DNA of 64,000 nt from Hyphomonas sp. Mor2 (GTDB lineage: Bacteria; Pseudomonadota; Alphaproteobacteria; Caulobacterales; Hyphomonadaceae): NCBI RefSeq assembly GCF_001854405.1, contig NZ_CP017718.1:620001-684000 (forward strand), written 5' to 3'. The notes beneath the pieces were generated by a model, which saw nothing but the letters and a program-made list of their open reading frames with translations, was not told the DNA's origin and did not search any database. A program made the position numbers and the translations under genes. Below are positions 7,956-25,784 of the stretch, piece by piece (the stretch's first letter is position 1; every line of letters begins with the position of its first letter).

Positions 7956-8076
7956 GAGTTCCTCCGTCCTGCCCGCAAGATAATTCGGGCAATACGGCGC
8001 GATCATGACCGGATTGTTACTTTGTCGAGGTCTGCGACCGGCTCAGGCACGGACCTTTGAGACTCGAACTTCAGGC

Positions 8077-9225
8077 TTATCCGTCCGTGGCGATGGACGC
8101 CGAACCCGTCGTATCCACCTCTGCGAGTAGGGTGGCGAGTTCCGCTCCAATCAATCGGGAGAGGCGTTCCGCGCCTTCGCCGGTCATATGGGATTCATCG
8201 AACCAGAGTGAGGGTTCGGTGAACTCGGTATAGATGGCGGGATCGAAATCCAGCACCAGGAGATCGGGATCCAGTTTCAGCGCCGCATCGCGAACCGCGT
8301 TGCTCAGCGGCGAAAACTTCACCGTCGGCGGATTGAGATAAATGACGGTGTAGCCAGCAGCTTCCAGGCGGGTGACCAGGTCGAGAATCAAACCCGCCCG
8401 ACAGGCCAGTTGGCTTTCGCGGGGGGCTCGCATGCCCTGTCCATCAATGTATGCCTGCATCTTATCGGGCGTCATCGACGCGAAGCCTTGGCGGGCGACG
8501 ACATGGTCTGTCAAATCGCGATCGACGGGCCAAAAACCATGATTGTTCCGGTAAGCTGGATCGTACGTTAACTGGAGCGTTTCAGCCGCTGGAAACAGCG
8601 TGTTTGCCAAGCGTCCAAATCCCGTCGTTTCAGCCGTCACCGCTAGGCTGTTACTATAGATGCGCCGCAACAGGCCAAGCGAGGTTCCAGTATAGCAGGC
8701 CACTTCGGAAACGGTGTTGCCCACCCGCGCACCATTCCTGAAATAGCGACCACGATCGGTGAGCAGAGTATCCAGATCTCCCCGCACCGGGAGTGGGTTC
8801 TGGATGACAACAAACTTGCGACCGTCAGCCGGATTGTCCGCGATCCTGTCGGTCAACAGGCTGAGTTCTGAATAGTTCAGAGCCGGTACGCCAAAATTGT
8901 AAACGTCCAGCTCATGTCCGTTGTCTGCGAGGACTGCGGAAATGGCGCTCGGGTCTATATGACGAAACGTTTCACTCGTGCCCAGGAATATGACGTCATA
9001 ATCCGCGCTTTGCTTGTCATAGTCTTCCAGCTTTTCGGTCAGGACCGCCATGTAAGGCATGCCATGGGCGCTGCGATAAAGGTTGGCGACAAGGCTGGTC
9101 AGGACGAGAAACGTTACCAGTGCGATCGTCCAGATGACGAAAGCGGGCATGCGCGCGCCAGACGCAGCTGCCTCTGAGGCCGGCGTCTTGTGAACGTAAA
9201 TGGAGGGAAGATTGTCGAGCGACAT
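8077..9225 (-). CDS. membrane-anchored SGNH/GDSL-like protein, MBOAT partner
   Basis: A 382-residue protein with one N-terminal membrane span (about 29-49), so most of it should be periplasmic. The start of the soluble domain, FLGTSETFRHIDP with Ser84, and the C-terminal DESHMTGEGAERL (Asp-x-x-His) fit an SGNH-hydrolase fold as in DltD/AlgJ/AlgX-type proteins. It starts 18 bases after the MBOAT gene ends, and this pairing is the classic two-component O-acylation module: MBOAT exports the acyl group and the SGNH protein transfers it to a glycan. The target polymer is unknown. Confidence 0.72.
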   Translation of the reverse strand: MSLDNLPSIYVHKTPASEAAASGARMPAFVIWTIALVTFLVLTSLVANLYRSAHGMPYMAVLTEKLEDYDKQSADYDVIFLGTSETFRHIDPSAISAVLADNGHELDVYNFGVPALNYSELSLLTDRIADNPADGRKFVVIQNPLPVRGDLDTLLTDRGRYFRNGARVGNTVSEVACYTGTSLGLLRRIYSNSLAVTAETTGFGRLANTLFPAAETLQLTYDPAYRNNHGFWPVDRDLTDHVVARQGFASMTPDKMQAYIDGQGMRAPRESQLACRAGLILDLVTRLEAAGYTVIYLNPPTVKFSPLSNAVRDAALKLDPDLLVLDFDPAIYTEFTEPSLWFDESHMTGEGAERLSRLIGAELATLLAEVDTTGSASIATDG

Positions 9226-9243
9226 GGCGCGATGGAGGGTCCT

Positions 9244-10659
9244 TTAGAACTGGAAGTAGACGAACGGGCGATAGCCAAGTGGGAACAGCGTGATCACCAA
9301 AGCTGCGAGCGCACCCGCTGCGGCGGCAAAGCGAAGGTCAGACAATGTGCTCAGGCGTTCCAGCATACCGATCTTGTGGGAGACATAGTGTAGCGCGCCG
9401 AGCGTAAACAAGAGCGGCCAGAGGGCGATTGGGAGCACCTGATCCCCGGCGCTCGACCAGGTAAAGTAAGCGAGCGTCATTCCGAACGCGGCCTCGAAGT
9501 CGGGCGCTCTGAAGAAGATCCAGGCGAGATTGACCCACCAATACGTGATCAGGGTGGAGAGGAGAATGAAAGCGGTTTTCATTCCGGCCACTTCAAACTT
9601 CACGAACCGGCGCCAATAGTTTTCGACAATTTGGGCCGTCCCGTGCAGGCCACCCCAGATGATGAAATTGTAACTGGCACCGTGCCACAATCCACCCAGC
9701 AACATGGTGGTCATCAGGTTGACCTTGTGATGCACCTCTCCGACGCGGCTGCCACCGAGCGGAATGTAGAGATAATCGCGAAGCCAGCTCGACAGGCTGA
9801 TATGCCAGCGCCGCCAGAAGACCTGGATGTTCGAGGCGAGATAGGGCGAGTTGAAATTCTGCGGGAAAACAAATCCGAGCAAGCCAGCGCAGGCAATTGC
9901 CATATCTGAATAACCGGAAAAGTCGCAATAGATCTGGACGCCATAAAGCAGGACGCCGCCGACGATCGTGGGGCCTGTATAGGCGGCGTGATCGCTGAAC
10001 ACCATATCGACATAGGGCGCGATATTGTCCGAAATGCCGGCCTTCTTGAACATGCCGATCATGAACAGGATCAGGCAATACCGGACATTGACGCTGTTCC
10101 AGACGCGTTTGCGTTCGATCTGGGGCAGAAAATCCGCCGCGCGCACGATCGGCCCAGCCACCAGCTGCGGGAAGAACGCGATGTAGAAACAGACATCCTG
10201 AAAGGACTTGCGCACGCCGACATCTCCGCGACGTATGTCGACGATGTAAGAGATCGACTGAAACGTATAAAAACTGATGCCGACAGGCAGAACCAGTTGT
10301 AGCGTGACCGTATTGACCGGCAATCCAACCAATTGCGCGACATCGGCAAATGAACCGGTGAAGAAGTTGAAATACTTGAACACCGCCAGCACGAGCAGCG
10401 AAGACACCACGCCGAATGCGAGCCATCGGTTTTGCGTTCGCCTGGATCGTCCTGGTGCTTCGCCGACATTCAGACCGACGACATAACAGATGATCGTGAT
10501 CAGCCAGATCAGGCCCAGAAAACGCCAGTCCCAGGCGGCATAGAACACATAGGATGCCAGCGTCAGAAGCAGCTTTCGAGAGCTATTGGACTTGAGCGAC
10601 CAATAGATCCCGAAGACGACCGCAAAAAACGCGAAGAAGCGAAGTTCAACAAACAGCAT
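9244..10659 (-). CDS. MBOAT family O-acyltransferase (AlgI-like)
   Basis: A 471-residue polytopic inner-membrane protein of the membrane-bound O-acyltransferase family. The catalytic His326 is in GGLWHGASYNFI and the second conserved motif RRWHISLSSWLRDYLY has His286. VAGPIVRAADFLPQ near 167-180 is also AlgI-like. About ten hydrophobic segments are visible, and the length suits the family. It should move acyl groups to extracytoplasmic polysaccharide together with the downstream SGNH protein. The preceding deacetylase gene lies 57 bases upstream on the same strand. Confidence 0.88.
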   Translation of the reverse strand: MLFVELRFFAFFAVVFGIYWSLKSNSSRKLLLTLASYVFYAAWDWRFLGLIWLITIICYVVGLNVGEAPGRSRRTQNRWLAFGVVSSLLVLAVFKYFNFFTGSFADVAQLVGLPVNTVTLQLVLPVGISFYTFQSISYIVDIRRGDVGVRKSFQDVCFYIAFFPQLVAGPIVRAADFLPQIERKRVWNSVNVRYCLILFMIGMFKKAGISDNIAPYVDMVFSDHAAYTGPTIVGGVLLYGVQIYCDFSGYSDMAIACAGLLGFVFPQNFNSPYLASNIQVFWRRWHISLSSWLRDYLYIPLGGSRVGEVHHKVNLMTTMLLGGLWHGASYNFIIWGGLHGTAQIVENYWRRFVKFEVAGMKTAFILLSTLITYWWVNLAWIFFRAPDFEAAFGMTLAYFTWSSAGDQVLPIALWPLLFTLGALHYVSHKIGMLERLSTLSDLRFAAAAGALAALVITLFPLGYRPFVYFQF

Positions 10660-10716
10660 GTCAGTTGCACCGTGCTTTCATACGTATGGCGCCTGGCCAG
10701 TTCGTGAGCCCTGACA

Positions 10717-11493
10717 TCATCCGGATTCCGATCCTGCATACGCCAGACGTACGCGAACAAACTGGTAGTCTTTGCTCTTCAGTGAAGCGAGCACTTGTTC
10801 GAGTATGCGATCTGACTCCTCGTAAGGATCGTGCAGGAGCACGATGCCGCGATTTCCATTCCGGCTGAGCGCGGTTTCCACATTCTCGACGATCTGAGCA
10901 GATGACGCGCCTCCATAGTCGTGTCCTAGCGCGTTCGCCCCAATGGCGATCAATCCAAGGTCATCGACGATCGCATCCAACACATCATTGGATTGCAAAT
11001 ACGTGAATCTGAAGAGTTTGGTGGCGCCCGTGTCGGGTGTGGAGCCAACGGCATCAGTCAAAGCCTCCATCCCTCTGGTGATCTCATCGCGTGCTTCTTC
11101 CGGACTGAGCTGAATCAACCGGGCGTGCGAAAGCGTATGGGATCCAATCAAATGACCGTCTTTGACAATCTGTTGGGCCAGTTCCGGATATTTAGCGGCT
11201 CTGTCTCCTCGCGGAAAAAATGAGGCCTGTATGCACTCAGCGGCAAGAACGTTCAGGACGCGTGGCGTGCGGACATCATGCGGGCCATCATCGAACGTCA
11301 ATGCGACTTCGCCTGATCGCAATTGTTCGATCAGGGGAGCGGATTGTTCGCTCAAAATGATTTCTCGCCCGACATGCGGCTGCGAGGCGCATTCTGCGGC
11401 GCTCGGGCGAACTCGCATGTCCGGCCGGCCTGAGCAGGCAGTGATTGCAAGGATCAGGACGCCTAATAACAGACATGGCTTGAGCGATGGCAT
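10717..11493 (-). CDS. polysaccharide deacetylase family lipoprotein
   Basis: A 258-residue NodB-homology protein (carbohydrate esterase family 4). The signal ends in the lipobox ITAC (Cys20). Motif 1, TFDDGP, is at 66-71 with the catalytic Asp68 and metal-ligand Asp69. Motif 2, HTLSH, supplies His119 and His123 for zinc. C-terminal VLLHDPYEESDRIL carries the catalytic-base His motif. It should remove N- or O-acetyl groups from a cell-envelope glycan. The next genes downstream are the MBOAT/SGNH pair, so this set may control acylation of one polymer. Confidence 0.85.
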   Translation of the reverse strand: MPSLKPCLLLGVLILAITACSGRPDMRVRPSAAECASQPHVGREIILSEQSAPLIEQLRSGEVALTFDDGPHDVRTPRVLNVLAAECIQASFFPRGDRAAKYPELAQQIVKDGHLIGSHTLSHARLIQLSPEEARDEITRGMEALTDAVGSTPDTGATKLFRFTYLQSNDVLDAIVDDLGLIAIGANALGHDYGGASSAQIVENVETALSRNGNRGIVLLHDPYEESDRILEQVLASLKSKDYQFVRVRLAYAGSESG

Positions 11494-14953: not shown

Positions 14954-15790
14954 TTACGTGTTTGCGCGTACCAGCCAGCAGGCCGAAGACATGGAGACCT
15001 GACCCTGTGCATTCGAACTGGCGTCCAAGCGCGCCATGACAGCCTCAAGGATCGATTTCGGGTCAAGGTCCTGTTCGGCGACCAGACGTGACAGAGGCCC
15101 AAGTTCCAGCATGAATCTGGCGCTGGTCTCGACATCGTTTCCCGGCAGCGCGATCTCGGGCTCGAATGCTTCAATAGAGACGCTTTTCCAGCCAGCCTCC
15201 GTGAGCAGGCCCGCAACACGGTCCTTGTCCGCAAACGCAAACGGGCCGGGTGCGGTCGGGTCTGGAGATGGAGGCGCTTGTTTCAAGAGCGGTAGCGCGG
15301 CCTGGAATGGCGCGAAGGCCCAATCATTGAGGGGAAGTGCTTGCCAGCAGATGAAGGCCAGTCGTCCACCGGGGCGAATTTGCGCCCGGATATTCGCGAA
15401 GGCTTCTGCGGGGCGCTCAAAGAACATCACACCGAAGCGTGAGATCATCAGGTCGAGCTTTTCGGTTACGGTGTACGCGCTCGCATCTGCCTGTTCGAAT
15501 GTGGCCAGTGATCCACGCTCAGAAGCACGTTGTCTGGCCAGCTCCAGCAGCGGCGCAGACACATCTACACCCAGCGAACCGGCTCCACCGCCTGCGCGGG
15601 TTGTGGCCTCCAGTGTCAGGATCCCGGCGCCACAGCCAATATCCAAAGCGCGTTCACCGGTTTGAATGGCCGCACCGTGCAGGACCTGATCCGCGAACGG
15701 TGCCAGCATCGAATCGAGAAAATTCGACTGATCCACCCACTTTCGGCCCGCATCTCCATTCCAGTATTCGATCATGTCGTCATTGTTCAT
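14954..15790 (-). CDS. class I SAM-dependent methyltransferase
   Basis: A 278-residue methyltransferase. The SAM-binding motif I ALDIGCGAGILTLE is at about 48-61, the acidic LGVDVS at the end of strand 2, and EQADAS and ISRFGVMFF mark later strands. The N-terminus has the pattern YWNGDAGRKWVDQ seen in UbiE/COQ5-like small-molecule methyltransferases. It begins 23 bases after the selD fusion stop, on the same strand, so it is the last gene of the selenocysteine operon. A role in selenium methylation is possible but not shown. It could instead act on an unrelated metabolite. Confidence 0.82.
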   Translation of the reverse strand: MNNDDMIEYWNGDAGRKWVDQSNFLDSMLAPFADQVLHGAAIQTGERALDIGCGAGILTLEATTRAGGGAGSLGVDVSAPLLELARQRASERGSLATFEQADASAYTVTEKLDLMISRFGVMFFERPAEAFANIRAQIRPGGRLAFICWQALPLNDWAFAPFQAALPLLKQAPPSPDPTAPGPFAFADKDRVAGLLTEAGWKSVSIEAFEPEIALPGNDVETSARFMLELGPLSRLVAEQDLDPKSILEAVMARLDASSNAQGQVSMSSACWLVRANT

Positions 15791-15813
15791 GGTGTCGGTC
15801 TTTCAATTGGAGA

Positions 15814-17985
15814 TCATTGGACAAGGATATGGGGGGCGCCTGCGGTGATTTCACCAATCTGCCAGATGGGTTCTCTCGCCGCCTTGAAGGTAGCGAAGAG
15901 ATCAGCGGCGTGTGTTGCCGGAATGGTTGCGAGTAAACCGCCGCAGGTCTGGGGGTCGAACAATAGGTCGCTGAGCGGCGACGCGGTCACGGTCATCTGG
16001 GCAGTGCGCACGGCATTGGATGGCCAAAGGGTGGATCGAACACCGCCTTCTGCGAGTGCCAGTGCCCCATCAAGGAGGGGGACGCGCTCCAGATCAAGCC
16101 TCGCCGAGACGTCAGATCCTTCCAGGATGTTGAGCAAATGCCCGGCGAGCCCAAATCCGGTGACATCTGTCAGCGCGGTGGCGTGATCGAGAAGCAGTCC
16201 AGCTGCAACGGATTGTAGCCGGCCCATGCTGGCCAGCGCGGATTGATAATGGTCACCATCGGCGAGCTGGCGCATCTCTCCAGCCAGCAGGACGCCGGTG
16301 CCGACGGGCTTTGTCAGTACCAATAGATCGCCCACCTTGGCACCGGTTTGCGTGATGGGTGCACGACCGATCTCGCCCTCAATCGAGAACCCAATCGTCA
16401 GTTCAGCACCGCTGCTTGTATGACCGCCAGCGATCTCGGTACCGCACTCTGAGAAGACTTCATTGGCCCCAGCGGTGATCTCACGGATCATCGCCACCTG
16501 CTTTTCCGGCGCCAGCGGCGGCAGGATGATGTGGGATAGAACCGTGCGCGGCGTTGCGCCCATCGCCCAAACATCGCCCAAGGCGTGGACGGCCGCGATT
16601 TTCGCGAGCAGGTACGCGTCGGGTGTAAAGGCGCGCAAATGGTCCGTGCTCAACACTCGGGTGCGATCGCTGTCCTGGAGGATGGCGGCATCTTCGGGCT
16701 GCGCGCCGGCAACCGAGTTCAATCCGTTCACCAACTCCGCGTGCCCGACTTTCGCACCACACCCTCCGCATTGTTGCGTGTGGTCGTCATACAGCGCGTC
16801 CAGCCCGGATGCGCGCGCCTCCGGAAGCGGGGCAGTTTGCATTCCCATCGGGACGTGAAATTTATCCATGAACGCGCGATCAATGCGATCCTTCAGGCGC
16901 CAGATCGAGGAACCCGAAATTCCGATCCCCCACTTGTCCGTGAGCGCTGATTTTCGACCCAGCGAAATCAGCTTGAGATAAGAGTTCTGCGGCGAAAAGG
17001 ATCGACGGGGACCGTCTGAGAGGCTTGCGCGCAGGTTCTCGTAAAGCACAGGCGCTTGCCGGACGGCAAACACCCCCGCTTTGGGACGGGGCGCATGCAC
17101 CAGATGCGCGCAATCCCCGGCTGCGAACACGTTTGGTGTATTGGTCGAGCACAAATTCCTGTCGACGCGGATGTAGCCGCTTTCAAGCTCCAGCGCTGTC
17201 TCCGCCAGCCAGGCATGTGGCGCTGCGCCGGCGGCACTTACGATGAAATCTGCGGGTACGCGCTGTTCCGACGCGTGGAGGCGAACACCATCCTGGTTTA
17301 CCTCCGTGACCTTGGCGTTGGTCATGATCTCAATCTGCGTGCGTTCCAACTCAGCTAGCAGTTTCGCGCGCGCGGTTCTGCCCGCCTCGCGAAGGATCGA
17401 GGGGCCGGCTTCTATCAATCTGATATCTCCCCGCAGGCCGAGTTCACTCAACCGATGGGCCATTGCCAATGAGAGCTCGACCCCGGCCACGCCGCCACCC
17501 AAGATGGCGATGCTGGGAGCTTGCCCGGTCTCGCTTGCCTTTGAAACCAAAGTGGCCCACCGGTCGGCAAAGATGCCGAGTGGTTTGGCCGGGACCAGGT
17601 GGCTTTCAGCGCCGGGCAAATCGCCCAGCGCGGAGGTTATCCCGATATCAATGGACAGTGTGTCATAGGCGATGGCAGGGCGACCGTGCAGCTCGACGCG
17701 CTTTTGCGTGGTATCAATTCCGATCGCGTGATCCACAATCAACCGCGCGCCCGCTTGGCGGGCCAGGCGGACCAGATCGATATCGAGTTCGCTCCGGTCG
17801 TAGTGACCCGCGACAAATCCTGGCAGCATGCCCGTATAAGGGGCTTTGGGATGCGGATTGACCAACGTCACTTGCGCGCCGGGGAGCGGTGCCATGGCCC
17901 ACTGTTTCAAGACCAGAGCATGCGCATGCCCACCGCCCAGCAAGACCAGGTCGCGCGTGATCGGGAGAGGACGGGTCTGTTGCAA
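15814..17985 (-). CDS. selD: fusion of FAD/NAD(P)-dependent oxidoreductase with selenide, water dikinase (SelD)
   Basis: A 723-residue two-enzyme protein. Residues 12-380 are an NDH-2-like pyridine-nucleotide-disulfide oxidoreductase (FAD motif LLGGGHAHALVL near 15, NAD motif ILGGGVAGVE at 161-170, FAD-binding FAAGDCAH at 287-294). Residues 400-723 are SelD, which makes selenophosphate from selenide and ATP. CGGCGAKV places Cys409 and Lys412 at the catalytic Cys17/Lys20 of the E. coli enzyme; this SelD uses Cys, not selenocysteine. The start is a TTG at 17985 behind AAGGA; another start slightly upstream is possible. The oxidoreductase may supply reduced selenium or redox protection (inference). 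Confidence 0.92.
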   Translation of the reverse strand: MQQTRPLPITRDLVLLGGGHAHALVLKQWAMAPLPGAQVTLVNPHPKAPYTGMLPGFVAGHYDRSELDIDLVRLARQAGARLIVDHAIGIDTTQKRVELHGRPAIAYDTLSIDIGITSALGDLPGAESHLVPAKPLGIFADRWATLVSKASETGQAPSIAILGGGVAGVELSLAMAHRLSELGLRGDIRLIEAGPSILREAGRTARAKLLAELERTQIEIMTNAKVTEVNQDGVRLHASEQRVPADFIVSAAGAAPHAWLAETALELESGYIRVDRNLCSTNTPNVFAAGDCAHLVHAPRPKAGVFAVRQAPVLYENLRASLSDGPRRSFSPQNSYLKLISLGRKSALTDKWGIGISGSSIWRLKDRIDRAFMDKFHVPMGMQTAPLPEARASGLDALYDDHTQQCGGCGAKVGHAELVNGLNSVAGAQPEDAAILQDSDRTRVLSTDHLRAFTPDAYLLAKIAAVHALGDVWAMGATPRTVLSHIILPPLAPEKQVAMIREITAGANEVFSECGTEIAGGHTSSGAELTIGFSIEGEIGRAPITQTGAKVGDLLVLTKPVGTGVLLAGEMRQLADGDHYQSALASMGRLQSVAAGLLLDHATALTDVTGFGLAGHLLNILEGSDVSARLDLERVPLLDGALALAEGGVRSTLWPSNAVRTAQMTVTASPLSDLLFDPQTCGGLLATIPATHAADLFATFKAAREPIWQIGEITAGAPHILVQ

Positions 17986-18042
17986 GAAAGCAATTTCCTT
18001 GTTCGGAAGAGGGGCGGGTGAGTCCGCCTCCCTAAAAGCGAT

Positions 18043-18066
18043 CAGCCCGGTTTCCCAACCGGGCTG
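18043..18066 (-). terminator. hairpin between UGSC selenoprotein gene and selD
   Basis: A perfect 10-bp stem, CAGCCCGGTT/AACCGGGCTG, with a 4-base loop, 23 bases after the selenoprotein stop. On the minus strand it is followed by ATCGCTTTTAG, a weak U-tract. It may be a partial terminator or attenuator that lowers selD expression relative to the selenoprotein, or an mRNA-end stabiliser. Confidence 0.5.
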
Positions 18067-18089
18067 ACCAGATCGGAATGTGTGTGCGA

Positions 18090-18608
18090 TCAGTCGGTCA
18101 GCGCTTGCACGACATGATCGTATACAGCTGCCGCTTTTGCGCGCATTTCCTCATCGGTTGCATCCTGAATCGGATGATCAACGAGAACGAAGCGGGCATC
18201 GCTCATGCCCAGCGCATCGCGCTGCGTGACCGCGGCATTGTGGAACTCGCTGGAGGCGATTGTCACCGCTGGAAGGCCCTGGATTTCAAACCAGACTGTG
18301 TCGTGCATACTGCACGTCGTACAAGACCCTCAGTCCGCCAATCCTTCCACCACGAAGTCGCATTCAGCCTTCATCTGCGCCCGTAAATCATCCGGGCAGG
18401 GTTTTGTGAAGGTCGGTTTGGCGTAGCGCCGGACCTCGATGTCCGGCATCCGTTCGCCAAGCAGGCGCTCCAGCTCGTCCAGGAGCACGTCGCCTCGTGG
18501 TTTGCGAATGTCCATCAAGCCAACGACGCCAGAGACCTTGCCAGAGCGCGGCGTAATTTGCCGGCTGACAGGAACTGCTTCGTCAGTTGGATCGAGAATA
18601 ATCGTCAT
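18090..18608 (-). CDS. UGSC-type selenoprotein (Sec at residue 93, UGA read through)
   Basis: A 172-residue protein whose reading frame contains one in-frame UGA at 18330-18332, decoded as selenocysteine 93. The local motif is U93-G-S-C96-T-T-C99. Reading it as a stop would split the gene into 92- and 72-residue pieces. Support for read-through: both halves are in the same frame with no other stop; the motif matches the known UGSC family; a hairpin fits directly after the UGA; and selA, selB, selC and selD are all in the same operon. A near-perfect ribosome-binding site AAAGGAGG precedes the ATG at 18608, which suggests strong translation. No signal peptide or membrane span is present. The biochemical function is unknown; the Sec-Gly-Ser-Cys centre suggests a redox or reductive-cleavage active site. 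Confidence 0.93.
18299..18332 (-). promoter_or_regulatory. Sec UGA codon and bacterial SECIS-like hairpin
   Basis: Directly after the UGA (18330-18332), the mRNA forms a perfect 6-bp stem CGUGCA/UGCACG (18302-18316) capped by a GUA loop. An outer UGU/ACA pairing lies across a 4-base asymmetric bulge (18299-18323). The apical loop begins 20 bases after the UGA and starts with G, which fits the known spacing and loop rule for bacterial SECIS elements read by SelB. Confidence 0.75.
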
Positions 18609-18622
18609 TCTTCCTCCTTTGT

Positions 18623-20209
18623 CTAAACGTCTTCAATCTTGCGCGAGACAGTTTGTGAGCCCATCGGTCCGGTTACCCAGCCATGATAGGCGCTCGAAAA
18701 TTTACCCGCGCCGGATCCAGCCACAACAATATGGATATGTTCCGGCTTGGCAAATTTGGGCACCAGTTTGTCCAGCTGCTCATCCTCGAGCTTTGCCGCC
18801 ACAGCCCGGGTCATACCTGCGCCAGAGATCTCATTGGCCACCATGTCCCGCAAGGGGCGCTTTGTGACCTCCTGTATACGATCGCGCAGACGGTTTTTCT
18901 CATAAGGGCCATCGCGCAGCAGCGTTTCGATATGTTCCGGGCAAACCACCAACAGAGCATCGACCGGCATCATGTGATATTTGGGCAAGAACATGGATTC
19001 CAGTCCCAATCCGAGCGTACCGGCAATTTCGTCCGGGGCGCGGGATTCCTGATCGACAATGTGAACGGGTCCGGACGTCATCGCAAACGCGGTGACGACA
19101 GAGTCCTTTGCATTGAAGCCACGCTCCACATGCAGGGGTGACCAGGGGGAGTGGTCTTCATTTTCCGCGAAGCACATGGTGAACTTCATCGGATTGCCGA
19201 GCGTTGAGCGATCCGTACCCCCCGGCTTTGAGCCGCCAATATTGCGCACAGCCAGGCGGACCGCGCGCCCGATCGTGGCATTCGCCCGGTTGCCCGTGCC
19301 CAGCGCCATCAGGCCGCTATTCATACCGATACGCTCGCAAATCGGGCCATTGACGACCAGCACCGGCGAGGCTCCCATTGTGGTAGCCATAACGCCATGA
19401 ATGTTGAACTCGTCCGTGCAGATGGCCTCAATCGCGGCGATCACCACTGGAAGATATTCGGGCTTGCAGCCCGCCATGACGGCATTGATGGCGATCTTTT
19501 CTATTGTCGCTTCACCCATATTCGGTGGCATCTGTGCGATCACCTCTTTCGGGGAGCCCCGCGTGCCGCTGAGCATGCGTATCACCCGCTCAGGCGTGGG
19601 CGGGACGACCGGCAGACCGTCGGAGAAGCCTTGATCGAACATGAATTCAGCCACATCGTCGGCCTTGGCAATCTCGATCTTGCGGGCGCGGATCGGGCTA
19701 TCCTCGGCCTCGGCGCGCAGGCGATCATGGATTTCCGGATCCAGGTGTTTTGAGCCACAACCGGGGCGCCAATCGGGGAGGGCATCCCAATCGACGGTTG
19801 CGGGGCCACACTTGAGCGCAGCAGCGATTTTTTGCGCGACATCCTGCCATTCTGATTTCACGAATCCTTCAAACTGGGTGTCCGTTGCCTCGCCATCCGG
19901 GCACCAGTACAGGGCAGGCACAATGTCAAAGCCGTAGGCGAAAGACGTCTTCAGTTCGGAATCGTCCAGAACGGGAAGGGTGAGCCCGTGGCGATCCTTC
20001 AGAATCAAACTGCCTTCGCGAGTCTGGCTAATCATCCAGACATTTGCCTTGTCACCATAGGCCTGCGCGAACGCTTCGAGCACCGGCGCAGCGAGGTTGC
20101 AGGTCTCGCAATCCTCTTTCACGAAACAGATCAGGCTCGGCTGTGATGACGGAAACGTCTGCGGCGTACCGCCTAAATCTTCAAGGTCGAAACCGGGGTT
20201 TGCAGCCAT
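18623..20209 (-). CDS. thioredoxin-fold fusion protein, partner of UGSC selenoprotein
   Basis: A 528-residue protein. The ATG at 20209 is preferred because AGGAG sits 6 bases upstream; an ATG two codons earlier abuts it. Residues 1-110 look like a thioredoxin fold with a CETC redox pair (Cys34, Cys37). Residues about 175-480 form a large domain I do not recognise, with conserved-looking blocks GFSDGLPVVPPTPERV, PPNMGEATIEKIAINAVMAG and ALGTGNRANATIGRAVRL. The C-terminus has a short beta-rich end, HIHIVVAGSGAGKFSSAYHG. It is 14 bases upstream of the selenoprotein gene and 69 bases after tRNA-Sec, so the two proteins are probably made together. It may be a redox partner or the other subunit of one enzyme; this is inference. 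Confidence 0.78.
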   Translation of the reverse strand: MAANPGFDLEDLGGTPQTFPSSQPSLICFVKEDCETCNLAAPVLEAFAQAYGDKANVWMISQTREGSLILKDRHGLTLPVLDDSELKTSFAYGFDIVPALYWCPDGEATDTQFEGFVKSEWQDVAQKIAAALKCGPATVDWDALPDWRPGCGSKHLDPEIHDRLRAEAEDSPIRARKIEIAKADDVAEFMFDQGFSDGLPVVPPTPERVIRMLSGTRGSPKEVIAQMPPNMGEATIEKIAINAVMAGCKPEYLPVVIAAIEAICTDEFNIHGVMATTMGASPVLVVNGPICERIGMNSGLMALGTGNRANATIGRAVRLAVRNIGGSKPGGTDRSTLGNPMKFTMCFAENEDHSPWSPLHVERGFNAKDSVVTAFAMTSGPVHIVDQESRAPDEIAGTLGLGLESMFLPKYHMMPVDALLVVCPEHIETLLRDGPYEKNRLRDRIQEVTKRPLRDMVANEISGAGMTRAVAAKLEDEQLDKLVPKFAKPEHIHIVVAGSGAGKFSSAYHGWVTGPMGSQTVSRKIEDV

Positions 20210-20278
20210 CGTCATCTCCTGCGTAAAGCTAGGCGAAGTCGGTCCGGCTTGTCCATGAGTTGCGCCGCGTCACATGGC

Positions 20279-20374
20279 TGGCGGAGGCGGATGGGAATCG
20301 AACCCACCACACGCCGATGACGACGCGTCGCTGGTTTTGAAGACCAGGGAAGCCACCAGACTCCAGTCGCCTCC
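20279..20374 (-). tRNA. selC: tRNA-Sec (UCA)
   Basis: A 96-base tRNA including an encoded CCA. The anticodon stem CTGGT/ACCAG holds the loop CTTCAAA with anticodon TCA. The acceptor stem is GGAGGCGA/CCGCCTCC (seven pairs plus an A-C mismatch at the eighth), giving the long acceptor-T arm needed by SelB. The T stem GTGGG/CCCAT with TTCGATT loop, a variable arm of about 22 bases and an extended D stem are also typical. It lies inside the operon between selB and the thioredoxin-fold gene and is probably processed from the polycistronic transcript. Confidence 0.95.
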
Positions 20375-20429
20375 GCTTGGGACCACACTTAGTTGCGAGG
20401 TCGAGTCGTGCAAGCAGATTTCAAGCGCC

Positions 20430-22307
20430 CTATGCGAGGATGATGCGCATATCCCCATCACGGCGTGTTTGCTCTGTCAGATCGAAATGTTCCAGCAAGG
20501 GCACGATGGTTTTTCGATTTGTGTTCAGGATTTCGCGGGCCTGACCTGTCGTGAACGTGGTGCCAGCCGGGAAGTGTTGGCTCAGTACCTTCAGCGCTTC
20601 TGTAACAACGCTTTGATGAAGAAGAATGCTCTGCTTCAGAGCATGATTGTACAGGCGCACTGCTATTCGCTCAGAGATCATCAGTTCAATCATATCCGCT
20701 TGCTCCGTCGTCATCTCTTTGCTGCCGAAGAGGTGCGTCGGTCGCAGGTCCATGTTAGCGAGGCGTTCAATGGCATCGCTGTACACGTCCTGCTGTTCGG
20801 GGGTCATCGCTGCGAAGGGGTCGTGCTCCGCGAGCGCTACGAAGCCTTCAACTGCTACAACGCGCTCGGACCTCAATAAATCTCGCTCAGCCTGTTCAAA
20901 CAGTTCGGTCTGTCGCCGTTTCAAGCGGGCGCGTACCGAAGCTGTGGGATGATGTGGTCGCAGGGGACGCGCCACGTGCAGGTCGGCCAGGCTCAACAGA
21001 TACGCGTCTGCGGCATCTTCGATGTCCTTTTCCCTTATGACCGTTTCTGGATTGAGAACCCGCAAACCGCGGGGCAGACTCGCGCCGATCACAGGCGACG
21101 GTTTGCCAATCAGTCGAGATAGTTCGGCCAATTGGATGACGCCCTTGTCGCGGTTCGCCAAAGCGTCCGCCAGAGCTGTCAGATCGTTTTCCTGCGCGGC
21201 GTCCAGAACCGCCACATGGAGCGGTTTGTTCTTGCGAACCAGGCGCGCCTCTGGATCCAGAATCTTGCCGCCGATTATTGTTTTGGCAGTGTTCGGATTT
21301 CTGAGCGCAAAACACTGCCCGCGAAATCCCGGTTGAGGATGCTCGAACTGCAATTGTACGAATTGGCGGCCCTTCTCCGATGAGGGGTATAAGCGCACCC
21401 GTGCAGCTTCATGCGTGGTGCCCCACATGACCATGACGCGCTCCATGTGCTCTATATCAACGGACGTGTCTGGCTTCGATGTCAGGAATACATCGAAACA
21501 TCGGGACGCCTTGAACGTGTTTGCCGCGCAGACCACATCGCCCCTGCTGATCTGCGACGTGCTGACACCGCGCAGGTTGAGGGCGACTCGAGATCCTGCC
21601 TCTGATGACCTCTTCGAGTGGCCAGCGACGTGGATGTCTCGCACGGTGGCATCGAGTCCGGCGGGGAGTATCGTCGCTGCCGCATCTTGCGAGACCGAAT
21701 GGCCGATCAAGGTTCCGGTGACGATCGTTCCCGCTCCCGGCGCGGAGAAAACACGATCCACCGGCAGAAAAAATCCGGGTAAATCCGGGTGTTCTGCGCA
21801 TCTGCCGGCATGATTTTGCAAGACCGCCTTCAGCTCCGACAGGCCATCCGTCGTGCGTGCGGAGGTCACGAGGATAGGCGAGGGGGATAGCTCCACAGAC
21901 TTCATCAACTGTTCAACCTCAATTCGCCGGTCCTCGATCGTGCGGGCCTCTGCGAGATCGGATTTAGTCAGTACGGAGATGACGTTCTTGATCCCGAGCA
22001 TCCGCGCGAGATGAAGATAGTCGTGGGTCTGACGCTTCACGCCTTCCACGGCGGAAACAACCAACAGAACCGTGCTCACGCCACTCAACCCTGCAGCGGT
22101 CGTGCGCACGAAATCGGCGTGACCCGGCGTGTCGATCAGGTGAATGTATCCTGACGGAGTGGCGACTCGGGCAAACCCGAGCTGGATGGTGAGCCCGCGC
22201 GCTCGTTCTTCGGCAAGCGTATCCGTCTCAATGCCGGTGAGGGCTTTCACCAGTGCTGTCTTGCCGTGATCCACATGGCCGATAACAGCGATAGTCTTGT
22301 CTGTCAT
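20430..22307 (-). CDS. selB: selenocysteine-specific translation elongation factor SelB
   Basis: A 625-residue GTPase that brings Sec-tRNA to the ribosome and binds SECIS RNA. The G1 motif GHVDHGKTALV is at 10-20, with DTPGHADF (G3) and TKSD (G4) following. EF-Tu-like domains 2 and 3 are followed by a C-terminal series of winged-helix domains, of which the last (about 565-625, with FTTGQAREILNTNRK and EHFDLTEQT) is the usual SECIS-binding module. The length matches the family. It overlaps selA by ATGA (22304-22307) and is followed 55 bases later by tRNA-Sec. Confidence 0.96.
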   Translation of the reverse strand: MTDKTIAVIGHVDHGKTALVKALTGIETDTLAEERARGLTIQLGFARVATPSGYIHLIDTPGHADFVRTTAAGLSGVSTVLLVVSAVEGVKRQTHDYLHLARMLGIKNVISVLTKSDLAEARTIEDRRIEVEQLMKSVELSPSPILVTSARTTDGLSELKAVLQNHAGRCAEHPDLPGFFLPVDRVFSAPGAGTIVTGTLIGHSVSQDAAATILPAGLDATVRDIHVAGHSKRSSEAGSRVALNLRGVSTSQISRGDVVCAANTFKASRCFDVFLTSKPDTSVDIEHMERVMVMWGTTHEAARVRLYPSSEKGRQFVQLQFEHPQPGFRGQCFALRNPNTAKTIIGGKILDPEARLVRKNKPLHVAVLDAAQENDLTALADALANRDKGVIQLAELSRLIGKPSPVIGASLPRGLRVLNPETVIREKDIEDAADAYLLSLADLHVARPLRPHHPTASVRARLKRRQTELFEQAERDLLRSERVVAVEGFVALAEHDPFAAMTPEQQDVYSDAIERLANMDLRPTHLFGSKEMTTEQADMIELMISERIAVRLYNHALKQSILLHQSVVTEALKVLSQHFPAGTTFTTGQAREILNTNRKTIVPLLEHFDLTEQTRRDGDMRIILA

Positions 22308-23695
22308 TTTTGAGTGGTCTTGCTGAGTTGCGCAGCGATCAGGGCGATTTCGTCCTCGGCAACCGCACGCAAATCGAGCAGAAACTGATCGTTGGCGATC
22401 CGTCCGATAATCGGTGTTTCGCTCCTCCGCAGAAGCGTCGCAAGGTCATCGGCCGAATGCTCGTCGCTAAACAGGGCCAGGGCGAAACTTGGCAAATCCT
22501 GCTGCGGCAGCGAACCTGCTCCGGCGCGGGCCGTGGTCGAGACGAGTTCAGCATTGAATTGGGTTCGGCGCTTGATCGCCTCAGCGAGTTGGCGCGCCCT
22601 TGCTTCGATCTGATCGATCGGTTCGGAGAGCATCTGAAGAACGGGAATGCGCGCAAGTGGATCACTTGGTGCACGATATAGATCGAGTGTTGCACGCAGC
22701 GCGGCCAGAGAGAGTTTGTCGATCCGCACCGCGCGCGCCACGGGGTGCCTTTTGATGGTCTCAATGAGGTCGCGGCGTCCGGCAATAATTCCTGCTTGCG
22801 GACCGCCCAGAAGTTTGTCGCCAGAGAACGTCACCAGATCAACCCCTGCCGAGAGCACATCGCGTACGACGGGTTCGTCGCTCAGTCCAAACTTGGCGAG
22901 ATCAATCAGGACGCCGCTGCCAAGATCCTCGATCAGGATCTTACCCGCGTCATGCGCGAGCTTTGCAAGTTCGGTTCGGCTCGGGACCGACGTGAAGCCA
23001 ACAATGCTGTAATTGCTCGTATGGCTCTTCAGCAGGAGGGCTGTGTCTTCATCAATCGCATCCGCATAATCGTGCAGATGGGTTTTGTTGGTCGTGCCGA
23101 CTTCCTTCAGCTCCGCGCCGCTTTGCGCGATCACATCCGGCATCCGGAACGACCCGCCAATCTCAACCAATTCACCACGTGAGGCGATGACATTTTGTCC
23201 TTTGGAAAGCGCGCTCAGGCTGGTCAGAATGGCGGCGGCGCAATTATTGACGACCATGGCCGCTTCGGCACCCGTGAGTTTGCAGATCAGGGCTTCCACA
23301 TGCGCATGCCTGGATCCGCGCTTGCCATTGCTCAGCGCCAGCTCCAGCGACGAATAATTCGCCGCGACAGATTGCATGGCCTCAATTGCCTCCGGGGCCA
23401 GACGGGCGCGTCCGAGATTGGTGTGGATGATCACGCCAGTTGCATTGATGGCGCGGGTCAGCGTCGGCGCTCGGGCTGCGTTCAGATCTGTGGCGATCTC
23501 ATCAAATAGCATCTGTTCGGAGACTGGGTTGAGCGAAGCACCGCCCGCCGCCATGATCTTTGAGCGGGCAATGTCCAGCTTGCCTCGAATGGCATTCACG
23601 ACATCGCCGCGACCGTGCCGTTCGATCAACCGCTCGGCAGCCTCTGTTTCGAGCAGAGTCTGGACTTTGGGGAGGCGTCTCAATTGATCTTGCAT
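22304..23695 (-). CDS. selA: L-seryl-tRNA(Sec) selenium transferase SelA
   Basis: A 463-residue PLP enzyme that converts Ser-tRNA(Sec) to Sec-tRNA(Sec) with selenophosphate. The N-terminal helical segment LRRLPKVQTLLE is the SelA tRNA-binding start. Lys294 in FSGDKLLGGPQAG is the PLP lysine, and TNLGRA near 92-97 and DLGSG at 257-261 are family motifs. The length is normal. It is the first gene of the minus-strand selenocysteine operon, and 166 bases separate it from the divergent fabY-like gene. Confidence 0.96.
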   Translation of the reverse strand: MQDQLRRLPKVQTLLETEAAERLIERHGRGDVVNAIRGKLDIARSKIMAAGGASLNPVSEQMLFDEIATDLNAARAPTLTRAINATGVIIHTNLGRARLAPEAIEAMQSVAANYSSLELALSNGKRGSRHAHVEALICKLTGAEAAMVVNNCAAAILTSLSALSKGQNVIASRGELVEIGGSFRMPDVIAQSGAELKEVGTTNKTHLHDYADAIDEDTALLLKSHTSNYSIVGFTSVPSRTELAKLAHDAGKILIEDLGSGVLIDLAKFGLSDEPVVRDVLSAGVDLVTFSGDKLLGGPQAGIIAGRRDLIETIKRHPVARAVRIDKLSLAALRATLDLYRAPSDPLARIPVLQMLSEPIDQIEARARQLAEAIKRRTQFNAELVSTTARAGAGSLPQQDLPSFALALFSDEHSADDLATLLRRSETPIIGRIANDQFLLDLRAVAEDEIALIAAQLSKTTQK

Positions 23696-23861
23696 GCCTC
23701 ATTCTTTCCGAACTGAGACACGGGCGCAAGTTGGCGCGAGGGACGGGCACGGGTGCAATCGATCGAAATTAAGTGTTGAGCCTGGTCTCGAATAGCTTCT
23801 AGTGTTTCCGCTTATTCTATTGCGTGTGGGTCACGCGCAGATCGAACCGACGGATATTTCT

Positions 23862-25784
23862 ATGCGCTTACCAGTCATTGTCAGCATGGGTGGCGTCAAC
23901 GCTGCCGGTCGCACATCGGGGCATCAGGCCTATCGCCGTATGGTCATCGACGCGCTTCCCGATGAGCAGGCGAATGAGACCATCTTGGGCCTGGCCGTCA
24001 TGATGGGGCTGGTGAAACCAGGCCAAGGCGACAAATACGTCACAGCGGGCGATGACGCTCCAGATTCTCTCAGTGCCGAAGAGGTGGTCGGTCGCTACCA
24101 AAGTGAGGTCATAGCGGGAACCCTGGTGCGCCGCATTGAGAAAGAGCGTTTCGACGTCGATGCACTCTACTGGCAATCGAGCGCAGCCCTGTCCCCGCTG
24201 GCTGAGGACGGAGAAGACACAATCCGCGTGCTCGCCGACAAGGCAGCCATTCCAGATCAGATCCCGGACACGTGGGCAATTGAACCTCATGATGACACCC
24301 GCGTTCGGGTCACAATCAAGGGCGACCTGAACGTCTTTCTTTCAAATGCCAGGGAGTTTCCTGTGAAGGCGGCGGGCCAACTGCCGCGCGGCTTCGAGAT
24401 GGCGGGCCTTTACAATTCGCGCTTTCAGCCACGGGGCCTGCAAATGGCCCTATTCGGGGCGACGGATGCACTGCGATCGCTCGGCATCGATTGGGACGAC
24501 GTGCTGGCCTGTATCGAGCCGGACGAAGTCGGCGTCTATTCCAGCAGCGGCTTCGGGCAAATGGACAAGGAAGGTTATGGCGGCATGCATCAAGCGCGCA
24601 TGATGGGGCAGCGCGTGACCGCAAAATCCCTGGTCATGGGCATCAATTCCATGCCGACAGATTTCATCAACGCCTATGTCCTGTCCAATGTCGGGATCGC
24701 TAGCAGCGCGGTCGCGGCGTGTGCGACGTTCCTGAGCAATTTGCGCCACGCCGTTGCGGACATCCAAGCCGGCAAAGTGCGGGTCGCCATGGTCGGAAAC
24801 AGTGAGGCGCCCGTGGTGCCTGAGATCATGGATGGCTTCGGGACCATGGGGGCGCTCGCGACCGACGATAATATGACCAAGATCTACGGCGACGGCGAGA
24901 TCGACTATCGCCGCGCCAGCCGTCCCTTCGGCAACAATTGCGGATTTACGATCGGCGAAGCGAGCCAATACTTCATTCTGATGGACGATGCGCTGGCAAT
25001 GGAGCTTGGTGCGCCGTGCCTCGGATCGATAACCGACGTGTTTGTCGATGCCGACGGAACCAAGAAATCGATTACCGCTCCCGGCCCGGGCAATCACATC
25101 AGTATGGCGAAAGCCGTCGCCGCCGCCTCAGCTGTCGCCGGGCGGGAAGCCGTTCAGGCACACAGTTTCGTGCTCGCTCATGGCTCGAGCACGCCGCAAA
25201 ACAGGGTCACCGAGTCCCAGATCTTTGATCAGGTGGCGACCGCGTTCGGCATCGAGGACTGGCCACTCATCGCCGTCAAAGCCTATCTCGGACACACAAT
25301 CGCGCCGGCAAGCGGCGACCAGTTGGCGGCTGCGCTAGGATGTTTCGCGCATGGCATCCTGCCGGGAATTCCAACCCTGGATCACGTCGCCGCGGATGTG
25401 TCGCAGGATCGCTTGTCACTCGGCCCGGAGCATCAGCATCGCGACCCTTCCGATCTGGAGGTTGCGATCCTCAACTCCAAAGGATTTGGGGGGAACAATG
25501 CATCCGCAGTGATCCTGTCGCCTGGGAAGACGGAGGCAATGCTCGAGAAGCGTCATGGCACGACGGCGTTTTCTGCCTATGCGGCGCGGCGTGAGACAGC
25601 GCTTGAGGCGTCCGCAGACTACCTCGCGCGTGCGGACCGCGGCGAGTACGCCCCGATCTATCGCTTCGGCGAGGAAGTCATCTCGGACGCCGATATCCTT
25701 ATGACCGACAAAGCGATCTCACTGAAGGGCGCTGGCAATCCGATTTCTTTGCCGACCGACAATCCCTACGCGGACATGACGTAA
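23862..25784 (+). CDS. fabY: beta-ketoacyl-ACP synthase FabY-like
   Basis: A 640-residue ketosynthase. The start at 23862 (MRLPVIVSMGGVNAAGRTS) is chosen because this is how FabY proteins begin; the upstream in-frame extension is not conserved-looking. The catalytic triad is Cys287 (SSAVAACATF), His440 (LAHGSSTP) and His478 (YLGHTIAP). In Pseudomonas, FabY starts fatty acid synthesis by condensing acetyl-CoA with malonyl-ACP, in place of FabH. It is longer than FabB/FabF because of an N-terminal extension and an insert. The gene is divergent from selA and convergent with the RND operon. No visible ACP domain is attached. Confidence 0.78.
   Translation: MRLPVIVSMGGVNAAGRTSGHQAYRRMVIDALPDEQANETILGLAVMMGLVKPGQGDKYVTAGDDAPDSLSAEEVVGRYQSEVIAGTLVRRIEKERFDVDALYWQSSAALSPLAEDGEDTIRVLADKAAIPDQIPDTWAIEPHDDTRVRVTIKGDLNVFLSNAREFPVKAAGQLPRGFEMAGLYNSRFQPRGLQMALFGATDALRSLGIDWDDVLACIEPDEVGVYSSSGFGQMDKEGYGGMHQARMMGQRVTAKSLVMGINSMPTDFINAYVLSNVGIASSAVAACATFLSNLRHAVADIQAGKVRVAMVGNSEAPVVPEIMDGFGTMGALATDDNMTKIYGDGEIDYRRASRPFGNNCGFTIGEASQYFILMDDALAMELGAPCLGSITDVFVDADGTKKSITAPGPGNHISMAKAVAAASAVAGREAVQAHSFVLAHGSSTPQNRVTESQIFDQVATAFGIEDWPLIAVKAYLGHTIAPASGDQLAAALGCFAHGILPGIPTLDHVAADVSQDRLSLGPEHQHRDPSDLEVAILNSKGFGGNNASAVILSPGKTEAMLEKRHGTTAFSAYAARRETALEASADYLARADRGEYAPIYRFGEEVISDADILMTDKAISLKGAGNPISLPTDNPYADMT

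What the first reader, a model, noticed from the sequence alone, without database searches (positions are those of the whole stretch)
14954..23695. Self-contained selenocysteine island next to a single selenoprotein
selA, selB, tRNA-Sec, a thioredoxin-fold gene, the UGSC selenoprotein, a SelD fusion and a methyltransferase all lie on one strand with tight spacing (ATGA overlap of selA/selB; 13-104 base gaps further on). Sec genes are often scattered; here the known Sec genes and one target are linked, so the set could move as a unit or form one regulated trait. Whether other selenoproteins exist elsewhere in the genome is unknown.
Basis: partly seen in the sequence, partly recalled or inferred. 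Interest (0 to 1): 0.85.

Follow-up and report, generated by a model that had tools for sequence, protein, structure and literature searches.

The report
Selenocysteine cassette with one selenoprotein pair
A compact set of genes for using selenium as the amino acid selenocysteine sits beside the one protein found so far that seems to need it, and that protein travels with a partner whose relatives suggest that the pair is a thioredoxin-driven enzyme of still unknown substrate.

Summary
On the minus strand lie selA, selB, tRNA-Sec, a 530-aa gene, a UGA-containing UGSC selenoprotein, an oxidoreductase-SelD fusion and a methyltransferase. The conserved cassette is the first five: 55 of 60 sufficiently long related loci have all of them. 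SelD is an occasional extra, the methyltransferase a local neighbour. A terminator-like hairpin, also in 7 of 7 near relatives, separates UGSC from selD, so a single operon is doubtful. Among 120 relatives, the 20 with selA are exactly the 20 with UGSC; the own genome has no SelU or formate dehydrogenase over cut-off. The 530-aa protein joins a TlpA/ResA-like thioredoxin domain to a domain, partC, without a credible Pfam, NCBIfam or PDB match. partC occurs in the same 38 of 385 alphaproteobacterial genomes as UGSC. UGSC carries UxxCxxC, like GrdB of glycine reductase, with weak but above-control profile similarity, and 5 of 9 annotated plasmid loci with partC have a TrxB-like flavoprotein within 2 kb. 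Best reading: a private Sec cassette for a two-subunit, thioredoxin-driven reductase. Such islands with fdhA are known; this is a new variant. Substrate and activity are untested.

The parts
22304..23695 (-). selA, L-seryl-tRNA(Sec) selenium transferase, 463 aa
   Evidence: TIGR00474 584.8 bits, cut-off 267.9; the one PF03841 match in the own genome
20430..22307 (-). selB, Sec-specific elongation factor, 625 aa; overlaps selA by 4 bases
   Evidence: TIGR00475 263.9 bits, cut-off 242.25; SelB-wing_3
20279..20374 (-). tRNA-Sec (anticodon TCA)
   Evidence: ARAGORN; Rfam RF01852, 74 bits
18623..20215 (-). 530-aa partner: TlpA/ResA-like thioredoxin domain (about residues 1-130, CETC motif) fused to an undescribed domain, called partC here (about 156-530)
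   Evidence: Thioredoxin part: hmmsearch and Foldseek to ResA/YkuV. partC: no match over a curated cut-off and none credible in Pfam, NCBIfam or PDB sequences; in the same 38 of 385 genomes as UGSC
18090..18608 (-). UGSC selenoprotein, 172 aa, Sec at codon 93 in U-G-S-C-T-T-C
   Evidence: NF041046 and PF24696; TGA in 78 of 81 homologous loci, the other three not covering it
18330..18332 (-). in-frame TGA codon, proposed Sec codon
18302..18316 (-). SECIS-type apical stem-loop CGTGCA-GTA-TGCACG, positions 17-31 counted from the T of the TGA
   Evidence: 354 of 354 cells paired in 59 near sequences; 97.5% of 282 cells in 47 distinct rows from near and distant sequences, 7 cells changed on both sides, 0 of 500 shuffles as high
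18034..18070 (-). terminator-like hairpin (14 pairs, then CTTTT) between UGSC and selD
   Evidence: -27 kcal/mol, z -4.29; counterpart in 7 of 7 near relatives L026-L032; not listed by the consensus scan
15814..17985 (-). oxidoreductase-SelD fusion, 723 aa, with Cys in CGGCGAK; occasional member
   Evidence: TIGR03169 + TIGR00476; downstream of UGSC in 10 of 61 named loci with 5 kb downstream
14954..15790 (-). class I methyltransferase, 278 aa; neighbour, not a conserved member
   Evidence: PF13649/PF08241; absent from the same site in L230; in 2 of 80 named loci

Best explanation
This is a self-contained selenocysteine cassette serving one client enzyme. SelA, SelB and tRNA-Sec, with selenophosphate from the adjacent SelD fusion, insert Sec at UGA-93 of UGSC; the hairpin at positions 17-31 from the U of the UGA is the likely SelB-binding SECIS. 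UGSC and the 530-aa partner form one two-subunit enzyme. The partner's N-terminal thioredoxin domain delivers electrons; partC is probably the substrate-binding or second catalytic part; the Sec of UxxCxxC is the attacking or reducible residue, as in GrdB/PrdB-type reductases. Shown here: gene content, conservation, co-occurrence, near-constant pairing, hairpin conservation, and uniqueness in the genome for the few families tested. Inferred: Sec insertion itself, binding of the two proteins, direction of electron flow, GrdB-like chemistry, and the substrate class (a small catabolic acid or CoA-linked compound). Core cassette and selD/methyltransferase are probably two transcripts, or one with strong attenuation.
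For: Gene content. Conserved cassette. selA over cut-off and UGSC in the same 20 of 120 relatives; at class level 34 of 35 genomes with TGA-type UGSC have selA, against 22 of the 350 others. Own genome: one UGSC, no SelU or FDH over cut-off, one strong SECIS site of this type. partC and UGSC in the same 38 of 385 genomes; a partC match in 28 of 29 loci L150-L178, within 0.9 kb of UGSC in 19 of 20 extended loci, and a Pfam UGSC match beside or fused to partC in 8 of 9 annotated plasmid loci. Thioredoxin domain fused in the window subfamily; trxB-trxA-partC-UGSC in Arthrobacter, partC-UGSC-trxB in Roseovarius, trxB or a TrxB-like flavoprotein within 2 kb in two Variovorax plasmids and Haloterrigena, TrxB homologues also in L274, L286, L287. 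UxxCxxC with U and the first C invariant, second C at least 90%; the review PMC13188914 gives UxxCxxC for GrdB and thioredoxin as reductant in glycine reductase (passages). Profile comparison UGSC to GrdB-like: score 30.4 with Sec on Sec, against a maximum of 21.4 in 200 column permutations.
Against: hhalign gives only 20.8% probability for the GrdB-like link (5.8% with the narrower alignment A1), and partC shows no such link. The UGSC model resembles its 50 listed PDB chains only at TM 0.34-0.51 by query length. UGSC stands without partC beside it in L166/L188, and partC without a recognised UGSC in the Haladaptatus plasmid L296. tblastn with the window's UGSC finds only 2 plasmid records against 24 for the partner, although profiles recover more. 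No TrxB homologue was found in the 20 larger divergent loci L179-L198; four of them have a fused thioredoxin domain. The SECIS hairpin is not unusually stable by energy, z 0.75. Few selenoprotein families were searched in the genome; the SECIS search scored 150 of 1372 first-look candidates, and the class searches scored at most 8, 4 and 5 candidates per genome. Co-occurrence is not corrected for shared ancestry. No expression, protein or activity data.
Confidence: 0.55

Rival explanations
1. UGSC and the partner form a thiol peroxidase or other oxidative-stress protein: the thioredoxin domain recycles Sec after it reduces peroxides or oxidised thiols, and no catabolic substrate is involved.
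For: TlpA/ResA-like domain with CETC; UxxC motif; redox reading of UGSC in the literature (PMC2398784, passages).
Confidence: 0.2
2. The Sec genes serve further, unrecognised selenoproteins; the linkage to UGSC is only one of several uses.
For: Only FDH, UGSC and GrdB-like families and the UGSC-type SECIS were tested in the own genome; bacterial SECIS elements differ between genes (recalled).
Against: No relative among 120 has selA over cut-off without UGSC; the other 100 have neither.
Confidence: 0.15
3. selD and the methyltransferase form a selenium or arsenic methylation detoxification unit that happens to adjoin the Sec cassette.
For: Hairpin separates them from UGSC; weak matches of the methyltransferase to ArsM-type models (34.8 bits against a cut-off of 510).
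Against: The methyltransferase is absent in L230 at the same site; its listed NCBIfam matches are spread over many class I methyltransferase models below their cut-offs.
Confidence: 0.1

Closest known systems
selA-selB-selC islands with fdhA as only selenoprotein (alpha-, betaproteobacteria, Pseudomonadales; PMC1794560, passages seen)
   Same: Clustered Sec genes, one neighbouring selenoprotein, proposed transfer as a unit
   Different: Here the client is UGSC plus partC; no formate dehydrogenase over cut-off in the genome
UGSC-containing selenoprotein family (NF041046, PF24696; reference ABI76733.1 in PMC9312934 and PMC13188914, passages seen)
   Same: Full membership by both models
   Different: The passages seen give no specific function and no constant partner; a UGSC/Unknown_1 fusion is mentioned (PMC2398784)
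GrdB/PrdB of glycine and D-proline reductase (PF07355)
   Same: UxxCxxC motif, weak profile similarity with Sec on Sec, thioredoxin link
   Different: No PF07355 match among hmmscan hits up to E 5; a pyruvoyl subunit was not looked for; 172 aa against GrdB-like proteins of about 280-300 aa; the known enzymes come from anaerobes (recalled)
Ndh-SelD fusion (TIGR03169 + TIGR00476; PMC2398784, passages)
   Same: Same architecture, Cys-type SelD
   Different: Linked to the Sec cassette here

Membership tests
UGSC family (seleno)protein | Score above the curated cut-offs of NF041046 and PF24696 | tested here: met
   171.1 bits (cut-off 125) and 167.3 bits (cut-off 25)
UGSC family (seleno)protein | In-frame UGA at the U of UGSC, followed by a SECIS-type hairpin | tested here: met
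   TGA in 78 of 81 loci, three not covering it; hairpin conserved with compensatory changes; energy alone not significant
Sec-decoding machinery | SelA, SelB, tRNA-Sec and SelD all present | tested here: met
selABC-fdhA island | Client is a Sec formate dehydrogenase | tested here: not met
   No TIGR01591 match over cut-off in the own genome; best match has no stop inside
GrdB/PrdB (PF07355) | Match to the Pfam GRDB profile | tested here: not met
   Not among hmmscan hits of 32 UGSC proteins up to E 5; matches to this profile end just before the Sec, so the test is weak
GrdB/PrdB (PF07355) | Homology by profile-profile comparison | tested here: inconclusive
   hhalign E 0.0011, probability 20.8%; 0 of 200 permutations reach the score
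GrdB/PrdB (PF07355) | UxxCxxC active-site motif | tested here: met
   motif of GrdB from PMC13188914
GrdB/PrdB-type reductase | Reductive cleavage activity with thioredoxin as donor | not testable with these tools
   -
Mobile island | Integrase, transposase or flanking repeats, or an empty site | tested here: inconclusive
   No integrase or transposase among the ten flanking genes scanned with Pfam; contexts differ between species; no clean empty site found; flanking repeats not searched

The most novel reading that the evidence does not exclude
UGSC plus partC is a previously unrecognised, widespread two-subunit enzyme class: a thioredoxin-driven selenoreductase (with Cys versions), distantly GrdB/PrdB-like, diversified in bacteria and haloarchaea, often on plasmids, to attack different catabolic substrates; in this lineage it has captured the whole Sec machinery as a private cassette.
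Probability: 0.4. Interest if true: 0.8.

Novelty: new variant of a known kind. Interest (0 to 1): 0.58.

Why it matters
UGSC proteins are among the commonest selenoproteins in aquatic metagenomes (255 in the GOS set, PMC2398784, passages), yet the passages I saw give them no specific function. Naming their usual partner, the thioredoxin link and a GrdB-like motif turns an orphan into an enzyme hypothesis that co-expression can test. A genome that keeps a whole machinery for apparently one client is also a simple system for asking what keeps, moves or loses selenocysteine use: 11 of 29 genomes of the genus have it and 18 do not.

Tried and rejected
partC as a second selenoprotein: eight partC matches showed a TGA inside; reading all eight put it at or within seven residues of the end of the match, i.e. 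the gene's own stop codon. Rejected.

partC related to GrdB-like proteins or to UGSC: hhalign E 0.073 and 0.47. Rejected.

UGSC as thioredoxin fold (said to be likely in PMC2398784): the AlphaFold model (mean pLDDT 91.4; its last residue is the stop codon read as C) gave mostly flavodoxin-, azoreductase-, riboflavin/lumazine-synthase- and TIR-like chains among the 50 listed Foldseek matches, and no thioredoxin. Not supported. The partner's model is weaker in partC (overall mean pLDDT 81.4, pTM 0.61), and the 50 listed matches are thioredoxin-type proteins by title, or uncharacterised.

Foreign base composition: core cassette G+C 0.582, window 0.585. No signal.

Empty site: in other species the neighbouring beta-ketoacyl synthase and tricorn-type protease genes, where found away from the cassette, were not adjacent to each other. 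No clean empty site.

Promoters: the consensus scan gave 3 sites against 2.8 expected, no information.

Rows and subsets: A1 used the window and 40 of 76 complete near UGSC proteins; A2 the window and 47 of 80 near partners; A4 the window, 5 near and 26 of 29 divergent UGSC proteins; A5 the window, 5 near and 23 of 28 divergent partners; A9 15 partC regions; A3 6 of 16 GRDB matches; A8 24 near and 27 of 28 divergent SECIS stretches; A7 138 of 140 selected neighbour ORFs. In one search, 20 of 24 records were listed and 11 were fetched.

Full report
What is there. The window lies in a 3.63-Mb single-contig genome. The nearest named loci are Henriciella, Hyphomonas and Hyphomonadaceae MAGs, so the organism is probably Henriciella-like; the record itself is unnamed. 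On the minus strand, 14954-23695 holds selA, selB, tRNA-Sec, a 530-aa gene, UGSC with an in-frame TGA, an oxidoreductase-SelD fusion and a methyltransferase. selA and selB overlap by 4 bases.

Conservation of the cassette. The 530-aa protein was used to fetch 80 named loci (the best 80 of 206 relatives). Of the 60 with at least 5 kb upstream and 0.7 kb downstream, 60 have UGSC, 57 selB, 56 selA, 56 tRNA-Sec, and 55 all four; 36 have exactly the order and strand seen here. Five miss something: L037 lacks selA, L076 lacks a detected tRNA-Sec, and L090, L098 and L101 have no Sec genes nearby although their UGSC has TGA. SelD follows UGSC in 10 of 61 loci with 5 kb downstream; the methyltransferase was found in 2 of 80 loci. 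The codon at the U was TGA in 78 of 81 loci with a UGSC match; in the other three the match does not cover it.

Dedicated or not. In 120 relatives, selA passes its cut-off in 20 genomes and UGSC in 20; they are the same 20. Two further genomes have only sub-threshold selA matches. Within the genus 11 of 29 genomes have both and 18 have neither. At class level, 385 genomes: selA over cut-off in 56, UGSC in 38, of which 35 have TGA; 34 of these 35 have selA, the exception G130 being 77% complete; 22 of the other 350 genomes have selA, 21 of them without any UGSC match. In these class searches at most 8 (UGSC), 4 (selA) and 5 (partC) candidates per genome were scored, so copy numbers are lower bounds, and the counts are not corrected for ancestry. 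In the own genome: one SelA, one UGSC, no SelU over cut-off (best E 0.043), no formate dehydrogenase over cut-off and no stop inside the best match, no GrdB-like match, and one strong site of the UGSC-type SECIS, E 1.3e-22, the next at 0.109, with 150 of 1372 candidates scored. Other selenoprotein families were not searched, so "single selenoprotein" is likely but not proven.

The SECIS. Positions 17-22 pair with 26-31 (counted from the T of the TGA) around a G-T-N loop. In 59 near sequences all 354 cells pair, but only one pair varies (GC 50, GU 6, AU 3). With distant homologues added, 97.5% of 282 cells pair, two pairs change on both sides, seven cells do so, and 0 of 500 shuffles reach the covariation score. 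The fold energy of the window's own 45 bases is not unusual (z 0.75).

One operon? Between UGSC and selD there is a 14-pair hairpin followed by CTTTT (-27 kcal/mol, z -4.29). A hairpin with T-rich tail was found at this place in 12 of 75 loci, 7 of them L026-L032, the near relatives, where the stem sequence is recognisably the same; shuffled stretches gave 10 of 750. The consensus scan did not list it. Core cassette and selD are therefore probably separate or attenuated transcripts.

Does it move? Around the intact cassette the flanking genes differ: one context is shared by the window, L230, L232, L234 and L246/L247, a second by L228 and L236, a third by L233 and L237, and L229 and L231 share no flanking gene with the rest (one 103-aa ORF shared by L231 and L232 lies antisense within the cassette and is probably spurious). 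So at least five contexts occur in 11 genomes of one genus, judged on stretches of up to about 7 kb per side. Distances correlate between all pairs of SelA, SelB, partner and UGSC in 61 sequences (Mantel r 0.645-0.838, 0 of 999 permutations). This fits co-inheritance as a unit. No integrase or transposase was seen among ten flanking genes, composition is native, and no empty site was found, so recent mobility is not shown.

The partner. Residues 1-130 resemble TlpA/ResA/YkuV thioredoxins by sequence (E 2.8e-8) and by structure (TM about 0.8 by the length of ResA), with a conserved CxxC. For the remaining part (partC), the scan of 29 members showed no credible Pfam or NCBIfam family: the best non-thioredoxin hit was MazE_antitoxin, E 0.0039 in two members, the others 0.07 or worse in single members. 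The PDB sequence search gave one hit at E 5.4. partC was found in 38 of 385 genomes, exactly the 38 with UGSC, the Cys-type genomes G363, G442 and G478 included. A partC match lies in 28 of 29 loci L150-L178, at identities down to about 26-35%, and within 0.9 kb of UGSC in 19 of 20 extended loci. The exception in both sets is the locus L166/L188. UGSC and partC are thus, with few exceptions, two parts of one thing, and the thioredoxin domain is an optional fusion.

What it may do. UGSC has an invariant U, an invariant first C and a nearly invariant second C in UxxCxxC. The review PMC13188914 (passages) gives UxxCxxC for GrdB and thioredoxin as reductant in glycine reductase. Comparing UGSC with six GrdB-like alphaproteobacterial proteins, hhalign places Sec on Sec with score 30.4, E 0.0011 but probability 20.8%; 200 column-permuted controls reached at most 21.4, and two reversed ones 13.1 and 13.7. 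In plasmids, 24 records hold a partC relative, all below 60% identity; tblastn with the window's UGSC finds only two. Of eleven fetched, nine are annotated. Pfam finds UGSC beside or fused to partC in eight of these nine (with annotations); the Haladaptatus plasmid L296 has partC without a recognised UGSC. Five of the nine have a TrxB-like flavoprotein within 2 kb: Arthrobacter trxB-trxA-partC-UGSC, Roseovarius partC-UGSC-trxB, Variovorax SRS16 trxB with two genes in between, V. boronicumulans a flavoprotein near a UGSC-partC fusion gene, and Haloterrigena a flavoprotein directly after partC. The last two are annotated only as NAD(P)/FAD-dependent oxidoreductases. Acidovorax, Natrinema, Haladaptatus and Halalkalicoccus show none annotated as trxB. 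By tblastn, TrxB homologues also adjoin the pairs in L274, L286 and L287, but none was seen in L179-L198. Neighbours of 20 divergent pairs include CoA-transferase family III (7 of 138 ORFs), TctC receptors (5) and luciferase-like monooxygenases (4) (25 of 185 families shown); no background rate was measured. I read this as a thioredoxin-driven reductase acting on catabolic substrates; the substrate is unknown.

Novelty. Sec islands with a single selenoprotein are known: selA-selB-selC beside fdhA, with proposed joint transfer (PMC1794560, passages; similar in PMC5029168, passages), and fdoGHI-selABC clusters in Alphaproteobacteria (PMC8124441, two of three parts and passages read). UGSC is a known family and Ndh-SelD a known fusion. 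New here, as far as my searches of the held library went (and passages), are the UGSC-centred cassette, the near-constant partC partner and the thioredoxin/GrdB-like reading. A UGSC/Unknown_1 fusion was reported in PMC2398784; Unknown_1 may be partC, but the figure was not available. Two directly relevant papers by Haft and colleagues could not be read, so part of this may be in print.

Noticed in passing
window 6561-11493: Minus-strand run of a VWA-domain protein, an unmatched 382-aa protein, an MBOAT acyltransferase and a polysaccharide deacetylase, left of the tricorn-type protease.
   Followed up: partly
window 23802-25784: Beta-ketoacyl synthase-like gene found at 71-100% identity in 9 of the 28 same-genus genomes searched, all nine of which carry the Sec cassette, even where it is not linked to it.
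   Followed up: partly
L275, L285, L286, L287: Some divergent loci have two tandem partC genes beside one UGSC, suggesting a three-gene version.
   Followed up: no
L071, L073, L075, L079: MAGs titled Acidobacteria or Candidatus Sulfopaludibacter carry cassettes like those of Hyphomonas-titled MAGs; L073, L075 and L079 also share neighbours with L074; probably mislabelled bins.
   Followed up: no
G130 (L159): A 77% complete genome has four UGSC matches with TGA but no selA match; probably missing sequence.
   Followed up: no
L134-L149: GrdB-like proteins, several with TGA at the Sec site (UPxC), occur in alphaproteobacteria; GRDB matches in 8 of 96 genomes of the class sample.
   Followed up: partly
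L289 8398-8688 (Acidovorax sp. T1 plasmid p2-T1): The annotated UGSC gene stops after 96 aa, matching the profile only up to position 92, while tblastn similarity goes on to 8928: possibly a Sec codon annotated as stop, on a conjugative plasmid.
   Followed up: no
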